A program made the translations under genes and the position numbers. The notes under the pieces are model-generated. The model made no database searches and had not been told where the DNA came from. It saw only the letters and a program-made list of their open reading frames with translations. DNA of 34,666 nucleotides from a virus, in IMG/VR virus record IMGVR_UViG_3300030118_002519, positions 1 through 34,666 of that record; one strand, written 5' to 3'. Positions 1,577 through 20,938 of this stretch are shown here, one piece after another (the stretch's first letter is position 1; each line of letters opens with the position of its first letter).

Positions 1577-2791
1577 ATGCCATCATATACAACTAATTTA
1601 AACCTAGCTAAACCAACAGTCGGTGGTGATACTAACCAGTGGGGTGGCTATCTTAATACAAATACAGATACCCTGGATGGTATTTTTAATGGTGCTGGTA
1701 CAGGAACATCTGTAGGCCTACAAGTTGGCTCTGGCAAAACTTTAAAAGTTGGTGGTACATTAACAGCCACAGGCGTAGTGCAATTAACAGGATCTCAAAA
1801 CGAACTTAGATTTTTTGAAGCTATTGGTGGTGCTGACAACTATGTAGCACTTAAAGCACCAAACGAAATGAGTGGGAATAATAATTACTCATTAGTTTTA
1901 CCTGCTGCTCAAGGTACAGCAGGACAATTCTTAAAACTATCAAGTTTATCTGGTTCAGAAGGTTTGTTACAATTCGCTGATGCAGGCGGTCAAGCCGATA
2001 ATTATTTTGCTAGTTCTGGTTTATTAAACAAAGACTTGGGAGTTGGGCTTCATCTTAAGATAGCTGATACAGGAGCTAGTGTAAGTTCTAATGCTGATGA
2101 ATTAGTTATAGAAAATACAAGTGATGCAGGTTTATCAATCCTAACAGCTAATGATGCTGGTGGCTATGTTAAGTTTGGTGATCCTCAAGATGATAATGCT
2201 GGTGAAATTGCTTACACCCATGATGACAATAATCTTACTTTTAGTAGTGGTGGTGTAATTAATTTTAAAACTAATAACACCAATAGAATGAGTATTGCTA
2301 GCGATGGAGATTTAAATTTTGCATCAGGTCAATTACAATTACTTGCTGATAACTCTGCTGCAACAACAACAGCAAAATGGGATAGGGGTGCTGGACAAGG
2401 CGGAAATACTTCTATAGCTTTACAATTTTGTCATGGTGGAAGTGTAAAAGGAAGTATTGGTTATAATGATGGAAGCACCTCATATAATACTTCTTCAGAT
2501 TACAGACTTAAAGAAAATGAAGTAGCTATATCTGATGGCATAACAAGACTTAAAACTTTAAAACCTTACAGATTTAATTTTAAAACCAACCCAGATAAAA
2601 CAGTAGATGGTTTTTTTGCACATGAAGTTACAGCAGTACCAGAAGCAATTACTGGTGAAAAAGATGGTGAAGAAATGCAAGGCATTGACCAATCTAAACT
2701 TGTGCCTTTAATTACCGCAGCACTACAAGAAGCAATAACAAAAATCGAGTCACTAGAAAGTGAAATAGACCAACTAAAAGGAGTAAACTAA
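1577..2791 (+). CDS. Tail fibre protein with C-terminal S74 intramolecular chaperone
   Basis: This is a 404-residue protein. Residues 1-40 (TTNLNLAKP, WGGYLNTNTDTLDGIF) match the N-terminus of the larger fibre starting at 31999 ([25 protein letters not shown]), which suggests a shared virion-anchoring domain. The C-terminal 100 residues (about 306-404) begin with SSDYRLKENE, contain FFAHEV, and end in an amphipathic helix. This is the Peptidase_S74 / endosialidase-type chaperone that trimerises fibres and then cleaves itself off at the Ser of the SD motif. The middle is beta-rich and variable. The SD AAAGGAAAT precedes the ATG. It probably forms a trimeric fibre or spike; its receptor is unknown. 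Confidence 0.85.
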   Translation: MPSYTTNLNLAKPTVGGDTNQWGGYLNTNTDTLDGIFNGAGTGTSVGLQVGSGKTLKVGGTLTATGVVQLTGSQNELRFFEAIGGADNYVALKAPNEMSGNNNYSLVLPAAQGTAGQFLKLSSLSGSEGLLQFADAGGQADNYFASSGLLNKDLGVGLHLKIADTGASVSSNADELVIENTSDAGLSILTANDAGGYVKFGDPQDDNAGEIAYTHDDNNLTFSSGGVINFKTNNTNRMSIASDGDLNFASGQLQLLADNSAATTTAKWDRGAGQGGNTSIALQFCHGGSVKGSIGYNDGSTSYNTSSDYRLKENEVAISDGITRLKTLKPYRFNFKTNPDKTVDGFFAHEVTAVPEAITGEKDGEEMQGIDQSKLVPLITAALQEAITKIESLESEIDQLKGVN

Positions 2792-2792
2792 A

Positions 2793-3137
2793 ATGGCTAT
2801 AGAATATAATTGGGATTGTCAGACAGTTGACTATTATCCCGAACACGATGACCACTCACAAGTGGTATTTAATGTGCATTGGAGAATCAATGCTGTCAGC
2901 GATGAAAAAGACAGTGAAGATAATTTTTATGCAGCAAGCGTATATGGTACACAATCTTTAAATGTAGATGATATTGAAAACTTTATCCCTTACGCAGACT
3001 TAACCAATGAAATTGTTACTGGTTGGGTTGAAGGTGTAATGGGTGAAGAAGAAGTTCAGAACTTAAAAGATAGTTTAGCAAAACAAATTGCTGATTTAAT
3101 AGATCCAAAAGTCGTAACAGGCCATATCGGAAGTTAA
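2793..3137 (+). CDS. Small conserved protein beside tail fibres, unknown function
   Basis: This is a 114-residue acidic protein starting one base after the fibre stop. It has a beta-rich first half (YNWDCQTVDYY, VVFNVHWRINA), then ENFIPYADLTNEIVTGWVEGVMG and a C-terminal helix. The layout of a short strand region, then 'PYADLT.E.V..W' and a helix ending in Gln/Ile repeats, resembles small proteins that sit next to fibre genes in many marine phages. I recall such a family as DUF7936-like, but the assignment was not checked. There is no signal peptide or catalytic motif. Placement suggests a fibre-assembly helper or minor structural protein; this is inference. Confidence 0.75.
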   Translation: MAIEYNWDCQTVDYYPEHDDHSQVVFNVHWRINAVSDEKDSEDNFYAASVYGTQSLNVDDIENFIPYADLTNEIVTGWVEGVMGEEEVQNLKDSLAKQIADLIDPKVVTGHIGS

Positions 3138-3141
3138 GTGA

Positions 3142-4914
3142 ATGGCATTAATCCCCGTTACACCACCAGCAGGTATCGTTAAGAACGGTACTGAGTATGC
3201 AACTAAAGGTCGTTGGGTAGATGGGGATTTAGTTCGTTTTGAAAACGGCTATCTCACTCCAATCAAGGGGTGGAATAAACTTAGACCAAATCCAGTAGGT
3301 AGAATATTTAGTGGTACAGTTAGTACCACTGCTAGTAGTTTTATTATTACTATTACTACCACTACCGCACATGGAGCAATAGTAGGTGAAAAAATTAATT
3401 TACATGGTTTTGCTGCAACAGGCGGTATGCCAGCTAGTCAAATAAATCAAACCTATACGATTGCTTCAGTACCAAGTACTACAACTTTTACTATCAATAC
3501 ATTTCAAACAAATGTGCCAAGCATTGCTGCTACTTCAACACACACATCAAGTGCTTCAGAGGTTGTCTTAACAGCTACACCAACAGGCATGTATGCTTAC
3601 TACGATAACGATGGTAAAGAAGTTTTAGCTGTTGGCACAAGAAACGGTGTTTTAATTTACTATGAAGAAGTTTGGTATGACATTACCCCAACAGGTTTTG
3701 TTGGTGATGATACTTTATCACCACTTGGTTTTGGTGCTCACCATTTTGGCGTAGAAGATTTTGGTGATGCTCGTTCACAGTCAGGTTTATCTTTTGATAC
3801 CACAACTTTTTCTTTTGATAACTTTGGTGAAATATTATTATTCTGTTCGCCCTCTGATGGCAAAATATATGAGTGGAATCCTAATGCCCCAGCAACGATA
3901 GCAAGTGTCGTTACAGGAGCACCAACAAACTGTGAAGGTGTGTTAGTTACAAATGAAAGGCATGTTGTGGCCCTAGGAGCAGGTGGCGATCCTAGAAAGA
4001 TTGCTTGGTCATCAAGAGAAACACTAAACACTTGGACAGCTTCAGCCACTAACACAGCAGGTGATTTACAAGTACCAACAGGAGGCAGAATTATTGCTGG
4101 TATTAAATATCAAACAGATATTATCATTTATACCGATACTGGTATTGCCAGAATGTACTATACAGGTTCTCCTTTTATTTATGGTATTCAAGATGCAGGT
4201 ACAAACTGTAAGGCAATTAGCCCTAGAACAATTATTTCTGCTGGTTCTTTTTTAGCCTGGATGGGTGAAAACTCATTTTTTATATACAACGGTGCAATAA
4301 AAGAAATTAAATCAGATGTGCATGATTTTATATATGACAATATAAATTACACTTATAGACCTACTTCCTGTGGTGGACACAATTCTAATTACAATGAAAT
4401 GTGGTTTTTCTTTCCAACAGGCGTGAGTCTTGTGCCAAATAAATATGTTATTTGGAATTACATTGATAATGTTTGGTCTATTGGTTCTATGGATAGATCC
4501 TGTTGGATAGATCAGGGTGTATTTAATTTACCGATTGCTTGCGATAGTCTTGGTAATGTTTTTGAACATGAAAGCGATGTTGCTTTAAACAACTCTGAGA
4601 ATGTTGGTATTCAAGTACCCTTTTGTGAAACAGCACCAATGGAAATTGCTCAAGGCAGTAATTTAGTACAATGCAATCAAATTCTTCCAGATGAAGATGC
4701 TAATACTTTACCAGGTGTTACTATTAGTTTTAGGGGCAGGTTTAACCCATTAGGTGCAGAAACAAACTTTGGTAATTTTAATTTTGATGCAGATGGATAT
4801 ACTGATGCTAGGTTCACAGCTAGACAAGTACAAATGAAAGTTACAGGTGATGGTTCACAACCATTCCAAGTTGGTAATATACGATTAGATGTCAAAAAGA
4901 GAGGTAAAAGATAA
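3142..4914 (+). CDS. Tail hub / DNA-stabilisation-like structural protein
   Basis: This is a 590-residue protein. The N-terminus (PPAGIVKNGTEYATKGRWVDGDLVRFENGY) is typical of large podovirus tail proteins annotated as stabilisation or P22 gp10-like hub proteins. A Thr/Ser-rich strand region (residues about 55-140) is inserted before a body with repeated beta-blade-like stretches (WNPNAP, WSSRETLNTW, MWFFFPTG, VIWNYIDNVWSIG). That composition fits a beta-propeller closing the tail tube. It lies between fibre and ejection-protein genes, the usual place for tail-hub genes. The stop overlaps the next start (TAATG). The exact P22 equivalent is uncertain, but the structural role is fairly secure. 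Confidence 0.7.
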   Translation: MALIPVTPPAGIVKNGTEYATKGRWVDGDLVRFENGYLTPIKGWNKLRPNPVGRIFSGTVSTTASSFIITITTTTAHGAIVGEKINLHGFAATGGMPASQINQTYTIASVPSTTTFTINTFQTNVPSIAATSTHTSSASEVVLTATPTGMYAYYDNDGKEVLAVGTRNGVLIYYEEVWYDITPTGFVGDDTLSPLGFGAHHFGVEDFGDARSQSGLSFDTTTFSFDNFGEILLFCSPSDGKIYEWNPNAPATIASVVTGAPTNCEGVLVTNERHVVALGAGGDPRKIAWSSRETLNTWTASATNTAGDLQVPTGGRIIAGIKYQTDIIIYTDTGIARMYYTGSPFIYGIQDAGTNCKAISPRTIISAGSFLAWMGENSFFIYNGAIKEIKSDVHDFIYDNINYTYRPTSCGGHNSNYNEMWFFFPTGVSLVPNKYVIWNYIDNVWSIGSMDRSCWIDQGVFNLPIACDSLGNVFEHESDVALNNSENVGIQVPFCETAPMEIAQGSNLVQCNQILPDEDANTLPGVTISFRGRFNPLGAETNFGNFNFDADGYTDARFTARQVQMKVTGDGSQPFQVGNIRLDVKKRGKR

Positions 4915-5141
4915 TGGCTAGAAGGTCTTTACAAAAACCATCTGGAAATTTTGATATTGATTACCAAAATTATTTAGTCTCTGAAATAGAATACCGAGAT
5001 GGTTTATCTTTTAAGAAAGGTGAGCGAATAGAAGTGGGTGGAGGCGATTTAACAGAATTAGTATTAGTAAGTCCAAATGGAACAAAATATAAAATTAGTG
5101 TCGCAAATGACGGAACTCTCTCAGCTACAGCAACAATCTAA
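4914..5141 (+). CDS. Small hypothetical virion-module protein
   Basis: This is a 75-residue protein whose ATG overlaps the preceding stop codon. The basic N-terminus (MARRSLQKPSG) is followed by a beta-strand-rich part (LVLVSPNGTKYKISVANDGTLSA) that looks like a small beta-sandwich or a strand-loop-strand unit. There is no membrane segment or enzyme motif. The 3' end overlaps the next gene by 35 bases in another frame. Tight coupling to the hub gene suggests a tail accessory protein. I do not recognise the family. Confidence 0.7.
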   Translation: MARRSLQKPSGNFDIDYQNYLVSEIEYRDGLSFKKGERIEVGGGDLTELVLVSPNGTKYKISVANDGTLSATATI

Positions 5142-5511
5142 AATATTAGAGCCGTGGGAGATAGAGTGGCAAAGGTGTAAACCTTGGATTGAAAAAGCGG
5201 TTAAACACCAAGATATGTATAGTATCGAGGATGTAGAAGAACAAATTAGTAAGGGCATTTTTGCTTTATGGCCTGGGAAAAATAGTGCTATAATAACGGA
5301 GATAGTTGTCTTTCCCCAGATTAAGACACTTAACATACTGTTCTGCGGGGGAGATTATTCAGAACTACAATCAATAGTTGACACTTCTATTGAACAGTTT
5401 GCCAAACAATTAGGAATTAAACGCCTCTACGGTGGAGGCAGGAAAGGATGGCTTAGAAAGCTAAAAGGCAAAGGCTGGAAAAGCGAATATTTAATAAGTA
5501 AAGAATTATGA
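5107..5511 (+). CDS. GNAT-like small phage protein of the tail module
   Basis: I use the ATG at 5107 (MTELSQLQQQ). An in-frame ATG exists at 5077 but gives a longer overlap with the previous gene. The product is 134 residues. The pattern WIEKAVKHQDMYSIEDV, FALWPGKNSAIITEIVVFPQ, LNILFCGGDY, KRLYGGGRKGWLRKLKGKGWK matches a common phage family with an acetyltransferase-like (GNAT) fold that sits between tail and ejection genes. Substrate and activity are unknown, and a classical acetyl-CoA loop is not evident. It ends in an ATGA overlap with the next gene. The family resemblance is from memory. Confidence 0.75.
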   Translation: MTELSQLQQQSKILEPWEIEWQRCKPWIEKAVKHQDMYSIEDVEEQISKGIFALWPGKNSAIITEIVVFPQIKTLNILFCGGDYSELQSIVDTSIEQFAKQLGIKRLYGGGRKGWLRKLKGKGWKSEYLISKEL

Positions 5512-6323
5512 GCAAAGGAAAATCAACAACAACCACAACCACTGATCCAGCAATCGCAGCAATGCAAACAGACCTATATAATAGAGCTAAAGGCATTGCA
5601 GCTTTACCTTTTACACCCTACACAGGGCCAAGGGTTGCAGGATTCAATCCAGATCAATTAGCTGGCTTTGATGCAACTAGAAATATGTTTGGCCAATCAA
5701 TGGCTTTAGACCCAAGAGGTCAATTAGCTGGTATGGGCCAAGCACCATTAGACATAAACTCTTTTTACAATCCATACCAAGAACAAGTTATAGATAATGC
5801 TATGGCTGACTTAAATAGAGGGAGACAATTACAAATACAATCAGACCAAGATGCAGCCATCGGCAGAGGTGCTTTTGGTGGATCTCGTTCAGCAGTCTTA
5901 GAAGCAGAAACAAACAGAAACTTTGCAGACAGAGCAGGTAATATTGCAGCCAATTTAAGACAACAAGGTTTTGATAGTTCTGTTGCTAATGCTATGGCAG
6001 ACAGAAACTTTCGTTCTGGTATTAACCAAGGTTTGCTTAGTGACCAGTTTAGAAACTTAGGTTTACTATCTGGTATTGGTGCACAACAACAGGGCTTACA
6101 ACAAGGAGCTATGGATGCAGGTTACAATGAGTTCTTGAGAGGTATTAATTATCCAGCACAACAGCTTGGTTTGCTTGCTCAAGGTGTTAGTGCATTGCCT
6201 AATCAACAATCTAAAACACAAAGTTACAGACCTGGTTTTGGTGACTTCTTAGGTGGTGCTGCTGGATTAGTAGGCTCTATGTATGCTGGTGGATTTAACC
6301 CATTTGGACTTTTTAAAACTTAG
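5508..6323 (+). CDS. Internal virion / DNA ejection protein A
   Basis: This is a 271-residue protein overlapping the preceding gene by ATGA. The N-terminus is Ser/Thr/Lys-rich (MSKGKSTTTTTTDPA). A Gln/Ala/Asn-rich helical body follows (NPYQEQVIDNAMADLNRGRQ, GAFGGSRSAVLEAETNR), then a Gly-rich tail (FLGGAAGLVGSMYAGG). Such proteins are found at this place in podovirus genomes as internal or ejection proteins that form part of the trans-envelope DNA conduit. It is followed by two larger genes of the same type, giving the three-protein set expected for P22- or T7-like ejection. Function is inferred from composition and order. Confidence 0.7.
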   Translation: MSKGKSTTTTTTDPAIAAMQTDLYNRAKGIAALPFTPYTGPRVAGFNPDQLAGFDATRNMFGQSMALDPRGQLAGMGQAPLDINSFYNPYQEQVIDNAMADLNRGRQLQIQSDQDAAIGRGAFGGSRSAVLEAETNRNFADRAGNIAANLRQQGFDSSVANAMADRNFRSGINQGLLSDQFRNLGLLSGIGAQQQGLQQGAMDAGYNEFLRGINYPAQQLGLLAQGVSALPNQQSKTQSYRPGFGDFLGGAAGLVGSMYAGGFNPFGLFKT

Positions 6324-6329
6324 AAAACA

Positions 6330-7610
6330 ATGACTGAATTAGAAAAATTTAATTTAATGTTACAGGGTGGTTATAACCCTATGGGCGGTGGTATTAACAC
6401 CAACCAAATGAATGACTTTATAGCTGCTGGTTTTAGAAAACCTTTTGATAACAAACCAGTAATGCAAAATCTTTTTAATACACAACAATTTAGTCAAAAT
6501 GTTGAAGATAAAAAACAAGCAGACCAAAGACTTAAAAACCAACAACTTGGTAATTTTCTTTTGGCTTTTAGTGATACTTTAAGAGGTGTTAATCCAGCTC
6601 AAGGTGTTTTACAAAGACAAGAAATATTTCAACAACAAGCAGATGAAAGAAAAGCTGAAGAAGAAAGAAATAGAATATTAGCTAGTATGTCAGATGACGT
6701 AAGAAAAATATTTGAAACTTATGGGCCTGTTGCAGCATTTCAATATAAACAAGCTCAAGACAACGCTGAGATCACTGCTTTACAAAAACAAAGAGAAGCA
6801 CAGGCATTTAGAGATGCAGGGCTTGATGAAAGAAGTATATCTTTATTTACAGACACAGATTTAAGTGTTGATGAAATTTTAAAACTTACTGGCCCATCAG
6901 AAAATGAACAAAAAATTGCAGATTTAATAGCGAGCGGTTTGACAGAAAATCAAGCAAAACTCAAAGTTGCTGGAGTCAGCGATAAATACGTTTTTGAAAT
7001 TAATAAAAATGGACAAATTAAAAAATCAATAGACGATTTAGATAAAGAAATTAATGAACAATATATTTCTTCAGAAGGACTACAAAAAATAGATCAAGGT
7101 TTTGGTCTTAAAGACACAATAGACAATATCGCTAACCAAGCTCTTGGCCCTATAGTTGGAACACCAGCAAAAGATACCAATAAAGCAATCGCTGCAAAAA
7201 AAGTTTTAAATGAAAATTTAAGAGAAAGATTTGTTAATCAATATTCAGGCAGACCAAGCGTTTATTTAAACCAAAGAATTGATGCTTTATTACCACAAGA
7301 TGTTTATATGCCTGAGTTCGATGCACTACAAAGATATACAGAAATTAGTAGAGTTTTAGTTCAAGCAAAACAAGAGCTTAAAGAAAATATTGAGAGTGGT
7401 TTATATGAGGGTTTAGATTTACTAAATTTACAAAATGAATATAAAAGCACATCAATACTTTTAAAAGACTTAGCAGTAGCTACAGGAAACTTAAAAGGTG
7501 ATGAAAAAGTATCATTAGAACAAGTTAATGAAAATTTTTCCTCTACAGGTAAATATGCTAAAGGACAATATGATCCTGTATTTTTAAACAATACAAACAA
7601 AGAAGAATAA
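6330..7610 (+). CDS. Internal virion / DNA ejection protein B
   Basis: This is a 426-residue protein, strongly helical and rich in Lys, Glu, Gln and Asn. Residues about 75-120 (FSDTLRGVNPAQGV, QRQEIFQQQADERKAEEE) look like a coiled coil. There is no membrane segment. It lies six bases after ejection protein A and two bases before the large ejection protein, so the three are probably co-translated and co-packaged. I have no sequence-specific family name; the role is inferred from position and coiled-coil content. Confidence 0.65.
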   Translation: MTELEKFNLMLQGGYNPMGGGINTNQMNDFIAAGFRKPFDNKPVMQNLFNTQQFSQNVEDKKQADQRLKNQQLGNFLLAFSDTLRGVNPAQGVLQRQEIFQQQADERKAEEERNRILASMSDDVRKIFETYGPVAAFQYKQAQDNAEITALQKQREAQAFRDAGLDERSISLFTDTDLSVDEILKLTGPSENEQKIADLIASGLTENQAKLKVAGVSDKYVFEINKNGQIKKSIDDLDKEINEQYISSEGLQKIDQGFGLKDTIDNIANQALGPIVGTPAKDTNKAIAAKKVLNENLRERFVNQYSGRPSVYLNQRIDALLPQDVYMPEFDALQRYTEISRVLVQAKQELKENIESGLYEGLDLLNLQNEYKSTSILLKDLAVATGNLKGDEKVSLEQVNENFSSTGKYAKGQYDPVFLNNTNKEE

Positions 7611-10111: not shown

Positions 10112-10156
10112 CTTTTAAGGAATGGGTCACAGGTTCGAATCCTGTAGGGCTCACCA
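10112..10156 (+). other. attP core: 3' part of a tRNA-Lys(UUU)-like gene
   Basis: From CTTTTAA, a Lys(UUU) anticodon loop, the sequence continues as the 3' anticodon strand GGAAT, variable loop GGGTC, T-stem ACAGG, T-loop TTCGAAT, CCTGT, acceptor strand AGGGCTC, discriminator A and CCA. Upstream bases (TAGTG) do not pair with GGAAT and no 5' acceptor strand is present, so this is not a working tRNA gene. Phages that integrate into tRNA genes carry exactly such a 3' segment to rebuild the host tRNA. The integrase starts 134 bases downstream. The tRNA identity is inferred from the anticodon loop alone. Confidence 0.8.
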
Positions 10157-17280: not shown

Positions 17281-17658
17281 ATGGAGGACTTATTTTATTT
17301 TAATGTATTGCAAAAACTTAATGAGAGATTAAAAAACTTTAACAAAAACAAAAAATTCAGATTTATTTTTCAAGATAAATTATCTTTTGCTGTTACCAAT
17401 TTAATAGCCAAACAACAATTCAAGCATAAGCCAATATATTATGAAGAAATTTGTCGTTTAGTTCCACATTATTTTGGCTCAAGATCCACCATACAATTAT
17501 TACTAAATGATGGTGTTGTTTTAGAGATTTACCACAAAACAAATCATGTCACTGATAAGCGATTACGGGTCTATAATATTCATAAAAATTTCATGCCAGA
17601 ATATAAAACTTGGCTTGATTTTATTGCTTCACGAACAACAAAACATGCCCAATATTGA
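17281..17658 (+). CDS. Winged-helix regulator, MarR-like
   Basis: This is a 125-residue basic protein. Residues 52-62 (IYYEEICRLVP), 67-78 (SRSTIQLLLNDG) and the hairpin 79-100 (VVLEIYHKTNHVTDKRLRVYNI) have the order helix, recognition helix and wing, with a D-x-R in the wing as in MarR-type DNA-binding domains. The N-terminal 45 residues are helical and could dimerise. A perfect palindrome overlaps its promoter, so autoregulation is likely. Its 3' end runs into a 21-bp tandem repeat that supplies its last codons and stop. With no XRE-type repressor in the window it is a candidate lysis/lysogeny regulator. The fold is inferred by eye. Confidence 0.7.
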   Translation: MEDLFYFNVLQKLNERLKNFNKNKKFRFIFQDKLSFAVTNLIAKQQFKHKPIYYEEICRLVPHYFGSRSTIQLLLNDGVVLEIYHKTNHVTDKRLRVYNIHKNFMPEYKTWLDFIASRTTKHAQY

Positions 17659-17786: not shown

Positions 17787-18236
17787 ATGTGGTGGATTCA
17801 ATACGGCTTAAAGAACGACAGGAAGCAAGGCGGGTGTAGCAAGGAATTGTACTTTGAACTGACGAAGAAGAATTATAGGACAAAGTTATGGCGGTGGGGC
17901 AGGAAGCAGATCGGCAGGAAGGATTTAACTGTAAGTGAGAGGTTGGCAGCATGGTCTTTAGTTGAGAGATTCAGATTAGAAACATTTAGTAGTCATGATG
18001 CGGTGAAATATTATGCTCTTATGACGGGCATGAGCAGGAATAGTTTTAGCAAGGCCATTAATGGTTTAATTAGTAAGGGTGTAATTAAGTTGGTTAAGGA
18101 AGCGGAAGAGGGCAAGGTATTTGAGAGCCTGGAGAGGGGCGGGAGGAGACATTTTTTATTTGTTGGTTTAGCATACGAGTTCAGCAAGAGGGGCAGGGAG
18201 AGGGCAACCCCTCAAGCTCTATATTTGGGAGAGTGA
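17787..18236 (+). CDS. Winged-helix DNA-binding protein, possible replication initiator or regulator
   Basis: This is a 149-residue basic protein. Residues 48-105 (LTVSERLAAWSLVERF, HDAVKYYALMTGMSRNSFSKAINGLISKGVIKL) match the HTH_36-type winged helix of replication initiators and plasmid Rep proteins. The recognition helix is about 84-97, with a wing to about 128. Codon use differs clearly from its neighbours: AGG, AAG, GGC, GGG and TGG are frequent, making the coding strand G-rich. The gene contains repeats of G(A/G)CAGGAAG (17817, 17898, 17913). Initiator genes often hold the origin internally, so both may apply. It is the last gene of the early block and has its own promoter and leader hairpin. 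Confidence 0.65.
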   Translation: MWWIQYGLKNDRKQGGCSKELYFELTKKNYRTKLWRWGRKQIGRKDLTVSERLAAWSLVERFRLETFSSHDAVKYYALMTGMSRNSFSKAINGLISKGVIKLVKEAEEGKVFESLERGGRRHFLFVGLAYEFSKRGRERATPQALYLGE

Positions 18237-18268: not shown

Positions 18269-18364
18269 TTAAGTTAGCCCTAAAACCCAACACCAGAAAA
18301 GCATTAAGCAGACAAGGATTAAAAACCATATAAAGGCTTTCTCAAGATCGTATTTAGTTTTCAT
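18269..18364 (-). CDS. Tiny single-membrane-helix protein (31 aa)
   Basis: A 31-residue frame starts at ATG 18364, inside the TAATG overlap with the upstream gene. MKTKYDLEKAFIWFLILVCL continues into MLFWCWVLGLT, one strongly hydrophobic helix after a short charged start. It is the last gene of the ten-gene minus-strand operon and ends 33 bases from the convergent HTH gene. Very short, but start coupling and clear membrane character support it. Confidence 0.5.
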   Translation of the reverse strand: MKTKYDLEKAFIWFLILVCLMLFWCWVLGLT

Positions 18365-18540
18365 TATTTCACCTCTCTTACTTCATGGTTTTGCCAGTCT
18401 CCTTTATGGAGTAGTTTAAACTTAGATCCACCCGTTGCTTCTGCTTTCTGCATGACTTCAATTTTATCTTTAGCCATTACATCCAGGTAATAATAAACAG
18501 GCTGCATAACTGTAACTCTATATTTTTTTGGTTTAGTCAT
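18364..18540 (-). CDS. Small hypothetical protein (58 aa)
   Basis: This 58-residue protein starts in an ATGA overlap with the upstream gene (MTKPKKYRVTVMQPVYYYLDV, then AKDKIEVMQKAEATGG and WQNHEVREVK). The pattern is strand, helix, strand with a basic N-terminus. It resembles neighbour 18537-18764 in general form: a strand-rich start of the type YR/YKI-T-x-E/Q, then a short helix. The family is not recognised. Confidence 0.7.
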   Translation of the reverse strand: MTKPKKYRVTVMQPVYYYLDVMAKDKIEVMQKAEATGGSKFKLLHKGDWQNHEVREVK

Positions 18541-18764
18541 AATTTTTCTCCTGTAATATTTTCATCTTCGTTCCATATATCCACTATATTCCCATCAACC
18601 TCATAAACATATTCTCTACAAGTTAAGTCTGAATCATTCGATAGAGTATAAGAACAATGGTCATCAATAGTACCATCCGTATATAAAGCTCTCATTTCTG
18701 CATTATCTTTTGCATCAACTTCAATACAAATAGTTTCGATTCTTGTAATTTTATAAGTTTTCAT
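18537..18764 (-). CDS. Small hypothetical acidic protein (75 aa)
   Basis: I chose the ATG at 18764 (MKTYKITRIETICIEVDAKD) because AGGAGAG lies 3-9 bases upstream; an in-frame ATG at 18776 has no SD and lies deeper in the upstream gene. The product starts with a strand (YKITRIETICIEVDA), then a helix (NAEMRALY), and ends very acidic (DIWNEDENITGE). It overlaps the upstream gene by 14 bases. Unknown function. Confidence 0.72.
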   Translation of the reverse strand: MKTYKITRIETICIEVDAKDNAEMRALYTDGTIDDHCSYTLSNDSDLTCREYVYEVDGNIVDIWNEDENITGEKL

Positions 18765-18960
18765 TACTCTCCTCAAAATCGGGATTTTTTATATCTACCC
18801 AGTCACCAGCTTGTGCAGTATCAAAAGAATCAACCTGTTCAGTTTCACCACCATTGGTTGTAAATAATTCGACTGCTTCTTCATAAGAATTAGCCATAAC
18901 AGAAGTTTCTTGTGCAATATTTAGAGTATGCCCAAATATATATTGTTTCTTAATAGACAT
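18751..18960 (-). CDS. Small hypothetical acidic protein (69 aa)
   Basis: This 69-residue protein runs MSIKKQYIFGHTLNIAQETS, then MANSYEEAVELFTTNGGETEQVDSF and DWVDIKNPDFEESNENL. The strand-helix-strand start with 'A.SYEEAVE' resembles small proteins that convert side-chain-rich strands to a short helix, as in its neighbours. It is acidic with no cysteine. It overlaps the upstream gene by 11 bases. Not recognised. Confidence 0.72.
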   Translation of the reverse strand: MSIKKQYIFGHTLNIAQETSVMANSYEEAVELFTTNGGETEQVDSFDTAQAGDWVDIKNPDFEESNENL

Positions 18961-19147
18961 TCTTCACCTCTACTAAATCTTGCATAGTCATATCTTCACA
19001 AAGATATTCAAGCGGTTTTAATCTACCTTTGCAGTAAAATTCTTTGATGCTGCCATCTTCATTTGTCAGTTCATTACCATCTTCGTCACAAACATAAAAC
19101 TTTATATCTAAAACATTTACATTAAGTTCCCCGTACATGTTTTTCAT
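18950..19147 (-). CDS. Small hypothetical protein (65 aa)
   Basis: This 65-residue protein starts in an ATGA overlap with the zinc-ribbon gene upstream. MYGELNVNVLDIKFYVCDED is followed by GNELTNEDGSIKEFYCKGRL and an acidic end (EYLCEDMTMQDLVEVKNVY). It is mostly strands with three scattered cysteines that do not form a CxxC pair. Unknown function. Confidence 0.7.
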   Translation of the reverse strand: MKNMYGELNVNVLDIKFYVCDEDGNELTNEDGSIKEFYCKGRLKPLEYLCEDMTMQDLVEVKNVY

Positions 19148-19311
19148 AAACTCTCCTCATATTCTTTATTGGTTCTTTCGTCCGCCCATAAGCCGTCAGT
19201 AGAGCCACAAGACAGACAAGTATCAGTAGTAGTATCTACATCCCTACTACCACAACATATACAACATAACGGCATTTCTGCTATCTCTTGCCAACTATAT
19301 GATTTTTTCAT
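19144..19311 (-). CDS. Small zinc-ribbon-like protein (55 aa)
   Basis: I start at ATG 19311 (MKKSYSWQEIAEMPLCC), which has GAGGAGG about nine bases upstream; an in-frame ATG at 19335 lacks an SD. The product has CCICCGSRDVDTTTDTCLSCGS: two CxxC pairs 12-16 residues apart, a typical zinc-ribbon knuckle pattern, followed by an acidic tail. It probably binds zinc and may contact RNA polymerase or nucleic acid. It overlaps the upstream gene by 17 bases. The zinc site is inferred. Confidence 0.7.
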   Translation of the reverse strand: MKKSYSWQEIAEMPLCCICCGSRDVDTTTDTCLSCGSTDGLWADERTNKEYEESL

Positions 19312-19513
19312 CTTCACTTTCCTCCTCAATTTCATTTACAACCTTTTCACAACAAGACATACAAAACCAATCACATAAATCTATATTTGTGTTATTGGCT
19401 TCCCATTGTTCAATTGTTTCTTCTGAACATTCTAATATTTCAACAATATTCATAATCATATTTTCATACTTATTTTTCGTATTACATACATTACAAATTC
19501 TTATATCGCTCAT
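19295..19513 (-). CDS. Small protein with two CxxC motifs (72 aa)
   Basis: This is a 72-residue acidic protein. CNVC (7-10) and CMSC with an extra Cys (about 51-55, WFCMSCCEKV) could form one zinc site around a helical insert (MNIVEILECSEETIEQWEANN). The C-terminus is Glu/Asp-rich (IEEESEDEK). Its ATG overlaps the upstream stop (ATGA). Together with its neighbour it makes two adjacent zinc-ribbon-like genes in the operon. Unknown function. Confidence 0.7.
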   Translation of the reverse strand: MSDIRICNVCNTKNKYENMIMNIVEILECSEETIEQWEANNTNIDLCDWFCMSCCEKVVNEIEEESEDEKII

Positions 19514-19668
19514 CTCTTCACCCTCACAAAGTCTATAAAGTCTGACTGTTCCCGTTTGGTCATTTCAACCCATTTAATTTGGTTAAATGGTTTATCGTAC
19601 TTCCTAGACATTCTGCGAATAAATAAGTTGTGCATGAATACGTCTATATGGTTTTTAATGTGTTTCAT
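19510..19668 (-). CDS. Small basic hypothetical protein (52 aa)
   Basis: A 52-residue frame with ATGA overlaps at both ends. The product starts MKHIKNHIDVFMHNLFIRRM and continues SRKYDKPFNQIKWVEMTKRE to a basic end VRVKR. It is basic, helical and rich in aromatic residues, unlike its acidic neighbours. Both overlaps strongly support a real gene. Function unknown. Confidence 0.72.
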   Translation of the reverse strand: MKHIKNHIDVFMHNLFIRRMSRKYDKPFNQIKWVEMTKREQSDFIDFVRVKR

Positions 19669-20051
19669 GCGGCCTCCTCTTCAAGTTCTTCTTCTAGTTT
19701 AAGAATCATAAAAGCCATAAAGTTCCAATAATTTTCACAAATACGGTCCTCTTGTGTGTTTGTTAAATCGTTATTGACTGAACCCATATTTTTAGCTAAC
19801 TGAATAATATCGTAATTACAGTATGGGATATTAATAGCAAGACCGCTTAACCATTCAGCAATTACTGACTGTTTAGTGTCTTGTTTAGTTCTTCCAATCT
19901 TCCAACCATATTCAGAATTAAATCTATTAAATAGATATTTAATTTTTTCTTCTCTTGATAAGTTTTTACCAATCAATGCATCTTCATTATCTAAACAGGC
20001 AAGAATATAATTTTTATAGTTTTCTTGGTATTTTGTGTAGTGTAATTTCAT
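19665..20051 (-). CDS. Hypothetical helical protein (128 aa)
   Basis: This is the largest product of the minus-strand operon. It is helical (YQENYKNYILACLDNED, SREEKIKYLFNRFNSEYGW), with a central SVIAEWLSGLAINIPYCNYDIIQLAK and an acidic C-terminus (LEEELEEEAA). It resembles small phage proteins in which a helical domain carries 'F.SEYGW' and 'EWL.GL.I..P', which I cannot assign to a function. It has ATGA overlaps at both ends. Confidence 0.75.
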   Translation of the reverse strand: MKLHYTKYQENYKNYILACLDNEDALIGKNLSREEKIKYLFNRFNSEYGWKIGRTKQDTKQSVIAEWLSGLAINIPYCNYDIIQLAKNMGSVNNDLTNTQEDRICENYWNFMAFMILKLEEELEEEAA

Positions 20052-20284
20052 CTTAACTCCTTAGAACTAATAAAGTCAGTCATAGTATTTCCAACATATT
20101 TAAAAGTAATTCTAGTATTTTCATAACTAGAACATGGCATTAAACCATAAACCCAACCTGCGTTAGCTTCTGTTTTGAATACTGTACCATCATCAAATTT
20201 GAAGATGTATCTAGGGTTTCCACATAATGAGTTTTTACCTCTAAAACACTTTATGCAGTCTCGAATTGATATATATTTATTCAT
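20048..20284 (-). CDS. Hypothetical protein (78 aa), first gene of the minus-strand operon
   Basis: This is a 78-residue protein beginning MNKYISIRDCIKCFRGKNSL. Three or four cysteines (CIKC, LCG, PCSS) and strands (PRYIFKFDDGTVFKTEANAG) suggest a small fold possibly holding a metal. A strong SD (AGGAGGAG) and a -10 box TATAAT lie upstream. It is coupled to the next gene by ATGA. The family is not recognised. Confidence 0.72.
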   Translation of the reverse strand: MNKYISIRDCIKCFRGKNSLCGNPRYIFKFDDGTVFKTEANAGWVYGLMPCSSYENTRITFKYVGNTMTDFISSKELR

Positions 20285-20323
20285 TCTCTCTTTCTCCTCC
20301 TACTTAATTGTAGGTATGAAGTA

Positions 20324-20353
20324 ATTATAAGTGCAAAAGTAAAGAAATTACAA
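20324..20353 (-). promoter_or_regulatory. Candidate promoter of the minus-strand small-gene operon
   Basis: On the minus strand TTGTAA (20353-20348) and a perfect TATAAT (20329-20324) are separated by 18 bp. The start would be near 20317, about 33 bases before the first ATG, with AGGAGGAG in the leader. It is the only clear promoter for the ten genes. Confidence 0.55.
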
Positions 20354-20449: not shown

Positions 20450-20938
20450 ATGCAAATGACGGAAAAAAAGAGAAAAAAACCAGGAAGAAAGCTCATAAAT
20501 ATAGATTTAGAACAGGTTGAGCGTTTGGCATCTCAAGGACTAGGAACAACACAAATTGCACGAGCATTAGGCGTTTCATGGAATACTATTGATAGAAATA
20601 GAAAGCGTTCTGGTGATTTTGAAGATGCTATAAAAAGAGGAACAGCAAGAGGACTGGCCACGGTTACAAACTCGTTATATCAATCTGCCAATGATGGCAA
20701 TGTTACCGCCCAGATATTCTATTTAAAGAATAGAGACAGCAACGCTTGGGCGGATAAAGTAGAGACAACCTTTAATGTTGATCTAAAAAACGTCATAGAT
20801 AACGCTAGAGAACGACTAGAAAACAACCAAAATATAATAGAGGGTCAAACAGTAGATATAAAAAGCGTTAAAGCAACAGGGTCAATTCCTAATAAAGGAG
20901 TAAGCCATAAGAACCAGGAGGACAAAGACAAGAAATAA
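20450..20938 (+). CDS. terS: Terminase small subunit
   Basis: This is a 162-residue protein. The basic N-terminus (KKRKKPGRK) is followed by a homeodomain-like HTH (LEQVERLASQGLGTTQIARA, LGVSWNTIDRNRKRSGDF), then helices (AIKRGTARGLATVTNSLYQSA, AQIFYLKNRDSNAW) usual for small terminases of the phBC6A51/Terminase_5 kind. It recognises the packaging site and brings in the large subunit. A second in-frame ATG at 20456 is equally possible; neither has a strong SD. It is the first gene of the late block, divergent from the minus-strand operon. Confidence 0.82.
   Translation: MQMTEKKRKKPGRKLINIDLEQVERLASQGLGTTQIARALGVSWNTIDRNRKRSGDFEDAIKRGTARGLATVTNSLYQSANDGNVTAQIFYLKNRDSNAWADKVETTFNVDLKNVIDNARERLENNQNIIEGQTVDIKSVKATGSIPNKGVSHKNQEDKDKK

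What the first reader, a model, noticed from the sequence alone, without database searches (positions are those of the whole stretch)
18269..20284. Ten overlapping tiny genes on the minus strand, all unassigned
One promoter (TTGTAA-18-TATAAT) precedes ten genes of 31 to 128 codons, each overlapping the next by 1-17 bases. Two encode zinc-ribbon-like proteins, one a single membrane helix, several very acidic proteins. The tight coupling and opposite orientation suggest an early host-takeover or defence-countering set.
Basis: partly seen in the sequence, partly recalled or inferred. Interest (0 to 1): 0.62.

Follow-up and report, generated by a model that had tools for sequence, protein, structure and literature searches.

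The report
Swappable tiny-gene operon in marine phage
Ten tiny overlapping genes on the minus strand of a marine phage form one real operon whose genes are swapped one at a time between related and unrelated ocean phages, probably as a changeable toolkit for taking over, or evading, the host bacterium; what each protein does is unknown.

Summary
Ten minus-strand ORFs (31-128 codons, overlaps of 1-17 nt, each with a Shine-Dalgarno site) fill 18269-20284 behind one promoter-like site. The chain scores 109, against a maximum of 16.7 in 300 shuffles.

The same place, between gU1 and TerS, carries such an array in 59 of 65 distinct marine islands. Their 583 ORFs fall into 91 shared families and 143 singletons. 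Two near-complete relatives with 98% TerL keep all 26 plus-strand genes tested but only 3-4 of the ten array genes. Homology blocks end at start codons 61-68% of the time, against 14% at random. g1-g2 and g8 are about 91% identical in DNA to copies in distantly related or unrelated phages. Most testable frames are under purifying selection.

New here: the leader holds a hairpin with a near-invariant AATTAA loop and a covarying stem.

Most likely this is a variable early host-takeover or counter-defence operon. Early timing and function are inferred, not shown. No product matches a characterised protein; g9's model weakly resembles T7 Gp2. The main rival is a prophage-expressed accessory operon, since the phage has an integrase and a likely attP.

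The parts
20324..20353 (-). promoter-like site TTGTAA-18-TATAAT; the best site lies at a constant place in many relatives
20299..20314 (-). leader hairpin CCTAC-AATTAA-GTAGG, abutting the Shine-Dalgarno site of g1; stem covaries in relatives
20048..20284 (-). g1, 78 aa, basic; dN/dS 0.19-0.26
19665..20051 (-). g2, 128 aa, all-helical model (pLDDT 89.5), phrog_11100 (unknown function); found in HTVC010P, Pseudoalteromonas phage HM1 and Phapecoctavirus; within the first three called ORFs in 12 of 12 arrays
19510..19668 (-). g3, 52 aa, basic, clade core gene; dN/dS 0.02-0.1 against its closest copies
19295..19513 (-). g4, 72 aa, acidic, two CxxC pairs (zinc-ribbon-like by spacing only)
19144..19311 (-). 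g5, 55 aa, acidic, two CxxC pairs
18950..19147 (-). g6, 65 aa, acidic; relatives in other arrays
18751..18960 (-). g7, 69 aa, acidic; relatives about 47% identical, plus one in an unrelated phage
18537..18764 (-). g8, 75 aa, acidic; DNA 84-91% identical to copies in phages without a related TerL
18364..18540 (-). g9, 58 aa, basic, clade core gene; two strands-helix-strand model, weakly like eL20/LX and T7 Gp2
18269..18364 (-). g10, 31 aa, single membrane helix, clade core gene, last in the array; dN/dS 0.03-0.16
17787..18236 (+). gU1, convergent flanking gene and left anchor of the island
20450..20938 (+). terminase small subunit, divergent flanking gene and right anchor of the island

Best explanation
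The ten ORFs are one operon, read from a single host-type promoter divergent from TerS. It is a hypervariable cassette array: the unit of exchange is one tiny gene plus the Shine-Dalgarno site that lies in the 3' end of its upstream neighbour, so a cassette can be swapped at the start-codon seam without breaking translational coupling. The transcript is predicted to begin with a covarying AATTAA-loop hairpin abutting the first ribosome site; I infer that it stabilises the mRNA or controls entry of ribosomes. The products most likely act soon after infection (or induction) on host machinery or defences, which would explain why they turn over far faster than the rest of the genome. Shown: operon layout, conserved frames, gene exchange, seams, hairpin covariation. 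Inferred: early timing, host-directed function, and recombination (perhaps by the phage's own exonuclease and Sak4-type annealing protein) as the shuffling route.
For: Chain far beyond shuffles. Same minus-strand array at the same place in 59 of 65 islands, 91 families plus 143 singletons, with clade-specific core genes such as g3, g9 and g10. All 26 tested plus-strand genes but only 3-4 of 10 array genes shared with two TerL-98% relatives. Homology blocks end at start codons, 61-68% against 14% at random. DNA of g1-g2 91% identical where TerL DNA is 77% (L002); g8 about 91% in phages with no related TerL. Purifying selection. Promoter position kept. Hairpin in 10 of 11 clade-A leaders, all five pairs with compensatory changes. 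g2 relatives sit in tiny-gene arrays of HTVC010P and Phapecoctavirus. All early genes of pelagiphage HTVC027P have unknown function (PMC12753301), though they are not homologous to these. The phage encodes an exonuclease and a Sak4-like annealing protein.
Against: No transcription data exist for this phage group. No array protein matches a characterised takeover or anti-defence protein. The phage carries an integrase, so expression in the prophage is possible. The promoter alone is only p = 0.04 against shuffles in the window and is unclear in some relatives. dN/dS gave no sign of positive selection; turnover is by gene replacement.
Confidence: 0.6

Rival explanations
1. A prophage-expressed accessory ('moron') operon: the genes are read from their own promoter in the lysogen and serve superinfection exclusion or defence against other phages.
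For: Integrase in 17 of 20 of the TerL relatives checked, window included; a tRNA 3'-end-like attP next to the integrase; own promoter, opposite strand and high turnover are typical of morons; g10 is a tiny membrane protein.
Against: Scans of 125 array proteins against PADLOC gave only weak single hits. No HTH_3 repressor above cut-off in 20 records. g2 relatives occur in Phapecoctavirus and HTVC010P, which I take to be lytic from general knowledge. Ten coupled tiny genes are unlike known one- or two-gene morons. The array lies 8 kb from attP.
Confidence: 0.22
2. Housekeeping accessory genes for replication or packaging (middle genes), variable because they co-vary with the neighbouring TerS and gU1.
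For: TerS and gU1/gU2 are also unusually divergent among TerL-98% relatives; one relative array holds a deoxyribonucleotidase-like ORF and others HNH-like ORFs.
Against: Gene content, not just sequence, turns over; homologues sit in phages with unrelated TerL; no replication or packaging domain in the ten products.
Confidence: 0.12
3. Not genes: chance or decaying ORFs in an AT-rich stretch.
For: All are short and few have family matches.
Against: Chain score 109 against shuffled maximum 16.7; dN/dS 0.02-0.3 in most testable frames; Shine-Dalgarno sites and coupled starts throughout.
Confidence: 0.02

Closest known systems
Hyperplastic small-ORF regions of T4-type phages shuffled by PeSL elements (Arbiol et al. 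2010; cited in PMC4503421)
   Same: Small unknown genes, fast turnover, shuffling between related genomes, stem-loops involved
   Different: Here one promoter and one leader hairpin serve ten genes; genes overlap, with no intergenic promoter or terminator; the seams are start codons with the Shine-Dalgarno site inside the upstream gene; the hairpin follows the promoter
ORFanage region of cyanophage S-PM2 (PMC4503421)
   Same: A block of ORFans behind a host-like early promoter, variable between related phages
   Different: Here the place, strand and coupling are conserved across many genomes and the families recur
Metaviromic islands of marine phages (PMC3909814)
   Same: Localised hypervariable regions of marine phage genomes; terminase genes are among those affected
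   Different: Those islands were mainly attributed to host recognition and terminase genes; this one is a non-structural tiny-gene operon
Right-end minus-strand tiny-gene cluster of Pelagibacter phage HTVC010P
   Same: Begins with a g2 homologue (45-59% identical to members of the family), then tiny minus-strand ORFs
   Different: The other genes are not related; different genome plan
T7 Gp2, inhibitor of host RNA polymerase
   Same: g9's predicted fold aligns to it (Z 5.5, rmsd 2.3, 48 residues); both are tiny
   Different: Ribosomal eL20/LX scores higher (Z 6.7); Foldseek E above 0.5; no sequence match

Membership tests
Early host-takeover gene region | transcribed first after infection | not testable with these tools
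   no transcriptome for this phage group
Early host-takeover gene region | host-type (sigma-70) promoter ahead of tightly packed small genes | tested here: met
   TTGTAA-18-TATAAT at 20353-20324; similar position in many relatives; sequence match only
Early host-takeover gene region | at least one product homologous to a proven takeover or anti-defence protein | tested here: inconclusive
   no Pfam, PHROG or PADLOC match of known function; the g9-Gp2 fold likeness is weak
PeSL-type shuffling cassettes of T4-like phages | small genes shuffled between related genomes | tested here: met
PeSL-type shuffling cassettes of T4-like phages | promoter plus stem-loop between successive genes | tested here: not met
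   genes overlap by 1-17 nt, so there is no intergenic room; the hairpin occurs once in the window
Prophage moron or defence island | phage is temperate | tested here: inconclusive
   integrase and likely attP present; no HTH_3 repressor over cut-off
Prophage moron or defence island | carries a known defence or exclusion protein | tested here: inconclusive
   PADLOC scan of 125 representatives gave only weak single hits
phrog_11100 (g2) | profile match over the whole length | tested here: met
   E 1.4e-30, residues 5-122 of 127
T7 Gp2 family (g9) | detectable sequence or clear structural match | tested here: inconclusive
   VIA Z 5.5, not the best row; Foldseek E 1.5; no sequence match
Zinc ribbon (g4, g5) | match to a zinc-ribbon profile or fold | tested here: inconclusive
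   two CxxC pairs each; no Pfam or PDB sequence match; not modelled

The most novel reading that the evidence does not exclude
A coupled-gene cassette system of marine phages: single tiny host-targeting genes are traded at Shine-Dalgarno/start-codon seams into one operon headed by a covarying AATTAA hairpin that acts as a shared expression module, giving each phage lineage its own set of takeover or counter-defence proteins.
Probability: 0.35. Interest if true: 0.7.

Novelty: new variant of a known kind. Interest (0 to 1): 0.52.

Why it matters
It marks a fixed address in an uncultured marine phage group where hundreds of tiny gene families, most of unknown function, collect and swap. If they are takeover or counter-defence proteins, this is a ready catalogue of candidates, and the seam rule and leader hairpin give testable hypotheses for how phages exchange single genes without breaking an operon.

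Tried and rejected
Close isolates: no phage record matches the window by DNA; best TerL identity is 50%. Host by prophage search: only two distant MAG contigs, so the host is not assigned. Homology of the array to genes of HTVC027P: none beyond weak short matches. Paralogy of g7, g8 and g9, suggested by a shared sequence pattern: not supported by profile comparison (probability 14.6 for g9 against g7); a first all-against-all run timed out. g2 against PDB 7bu0 (E 0.0012, 49 residues): a Legionella deubiquitinase, judged coincidental. g2 fold: no PDB match of note, best Z 3.3. Rfam: nothing. Terminator scan: none found between g10 and gU1.

Full report
Check of the observation. The ten ORFs lie where reported, with 78, 128, 52, 72, 55, 65, 69, 75, 58 and 31 codons and overlaps of 4, 4, 4, 17, 4, 11, 14, 4 and 1 nt. 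Scored as a chain of Shine-Dalgarno-led, coupled ORFs the region reaches 109 with 97% coverage; 300 dinucleotide shuffles reach at most 16.7 and the opposite strand 5.5. The promoter TTGTAA-18-TATAAT is at 20353-20324. g4 and g5 each have two CxxC pairs, g10 is one hydrophobic helix, and g4-g8 have pI 4.1-4.3.

Context. The window is an uncultured virus record of 34,666 bases, 36% GC. Plus-strand genes include an integrase, an exonuclease, a Sak4-like annealing protein, a primase-helicase, TerS, TerL and a portal. No phage record matches it by DNA. The array is convergent with gU1 and divergent from TerS.

The array in relatives. From TerL, TerS, primase and g2 searches I took every locus with both flanks: 84 loci, 65 distinct islands including the window. 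In 59 of 65 a minus-strand chain covers at least 70% of the island, with 3-14 ORFs. The chaining score favours coupling, but the plus strand of the same islands, scored the same way, is far lower in nearly all (L149 is an exception). Of 518 junctions 71% overlap and 51% are of the -4 or -1 type; the median length is 62 aa. The 583 ORFs form 91 families and 143 singletons. Each clade has its own core: in the window's clade these are g3, g9 and g10.

Turnover. Against two near-complete TerL-98% relatives all 26 plus-strand genes tested are present but only 3 and 4 of the ten array genes. TerS, gU1 and gU2 are also more divergent than the rest. DNA homology blocks between islands end within -25 to +5 of a start codon in 68% (left ends) and 61% (right ends) of 1,717 cases, against 14% at random; the cases are not independent, since many pairs share ancestry. 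The g1-g2 block is 91% identical in DNA to L002, whose TerL is 77%. g8 is 91% identical to copies in L168 and L169, which have no related TerL in the record held. In those phages the copies also lie in tiny-gene arrays; L170 and L171, likewise with g8, show runs of 24 ORFs. In L096 and L116 a g3 gene has a foreign N-terminus joined to the conserved last 16 or so residues, that is, to the stretch that carries the next gene's ribosome site.

Selection. dN/dS against relatives is 0.19-0.26 for g1, 0.12-0.27 for g2, 0.02-0.10 for close g3 copies, 0.22 for g5, 0.16-0.29 for g9, 0.03-0.16 for g10 and about 0.5 for g4. g6 has only distant relatives, and g7 and g8 were tested by the existence of intact relatives alone.

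Promoter and leader. In many islands the best promoter-like site lies at a constant place, its -10 ending 30-50 nt before the first ATG, including phages whose TerL is only 75-82% identical; one by one only 24 of 65 reach p of 0.05. In clade A and part of clade B a hairpin with loop AATTAA (rarely AATGAA or AATAAA) stands just upstream of the first Shine-Dalgarno site. It is present in 10 of 11 clade-A islands and 4 of 10 clade-B islands, plus L002 and L005, and in none of clades C, D and E. On 17 distinct sequences all five pairs show changes on both sides, 39 compensatory cells, 100% paired; shuffled pairing gives 57%. These sequences were chosen partly for pairing, so the fairer evidence is the clade-A count and the control loops: AATTAA hairpins precede a ribosome site and ATG in 15 distinct cases against 0-4 for the other 14 loops of the same composition. 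It is the only one in the window. L119 has a second copy directly before its g2 homologue, and L004, a phage without a related TerL in its record, has one too, so the leader itself may travel. No Rfam family matches.

Products. Pfam and PHROGs give nothing of known function for the ten. Among 125 representatives of the wider pool there are HNH-like ORFs, one deoxyribonucleotidase-like ORF, and otherwise unknowns; PADLOC gives only weak single hits. g2 has a confident all-helical model with no PDB match and only uncharacterised viral neighbours. Its relatives sit in tiny-gene arrays of HTVC010P, Pseudoalteromonas phage HM1 and Phapecoctavirus, and it lies within the first three called ORFs of all 12 arrays that have it. 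g9's model (pLDDT 77) has two strands, helices and a strand; the best structural rows are ribosomal eL20/LX (Z 6.7), with T7 Gp2 lower (Z 5.5), and there is no significant Foldseek match. I treat the Gp2 likeness as a lead only.

Mechanism and rivals. I read the locus as a hypervariable operon of host-directed genes exchanged singly at start-codon seams. The steps that are shown are layout, frames, exchange, seams and hairpin covariation; early timing and target are inferred. A parallel from the literature is that all early genes of pelagiphage HTVC027P are of unknown function (PMC12753301), but they are not homologous to this array. The main rival is a prophage-expressed accessory operon: 17 of 20 checked records of this TerL group have an integrase, and a tRNA-3'-end-like sequence stands before the window's integrase. 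Expression data would separate these.

Novelty. Hypervariable small-gene regions and stem-loop-linked shuffling are known in T4-type phages and cyanophages (PMC4503421), and variable islands in marine phages (PMC3909814). New in what I could find are the fixed address with near-complete gene overlap, the start-codon seams and the covarying leader hairpin. I searched only the held library of papers.

Noticed in passing
window 10118-10156 (+): Sequence like the 3' end of a tRNA gene (GGTTCGAATCC...GGGCTCACCA) about 130 bases before the integrase: a likely attP core that could identify the host. ARAGORN finds no whole tRNA.
   Followed up: partly
window 20450-20938, 17281-17658 and 17787-18236: TerS (45-93%), gU2 (60-71%) and gU1 (60-95%) are far more divergent than TerL (98%) among close relatives, so variability spreads to both flanks of the array.
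   Followed up: partly
L119:2151 (-) and L004:4111 (+): Further copies of the AATTAA leader hairpin: inside an array directly before a g2 homologue, and in a phage without a related TerL in its record.
   Followed up: partly
L170 and L171, about 2276-7273: Runs of 24 tiny coupled ORFs in marine phages without a detected related TerL that share families with this array.
   Followed up: partly
L096 and L116, g3 homologues: Chimeric g3: a foreign N-terminus joined to the conserved C-terminal residues that carry the next gene's ribosome site.
   Followed up: no
L115 array, ORFs 7 and 8: Two tandem copies of the g10 membrane-peptide family.
   Followed up: no
L149 island: Plus-strand ORFs score higher than minus-strand ones (62 against 44), unlike nearly all other islands.
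   Followed up: no
L177 (Pelagibacter phage HTVC106P): A run of small plus-strand genes starts beside the HTH-type gene at the other record end, divergent from the packaging genes, if the genome is read as a circle: a similar layout in a cultured phage.
   Followed up: no
BFVD A0A2Z4PZ79: A 289-residue viral protein with a g2-like domain (TM 0.77, 40% identity) and extra sequence; the fused part might hint at function.
   Followed up: no
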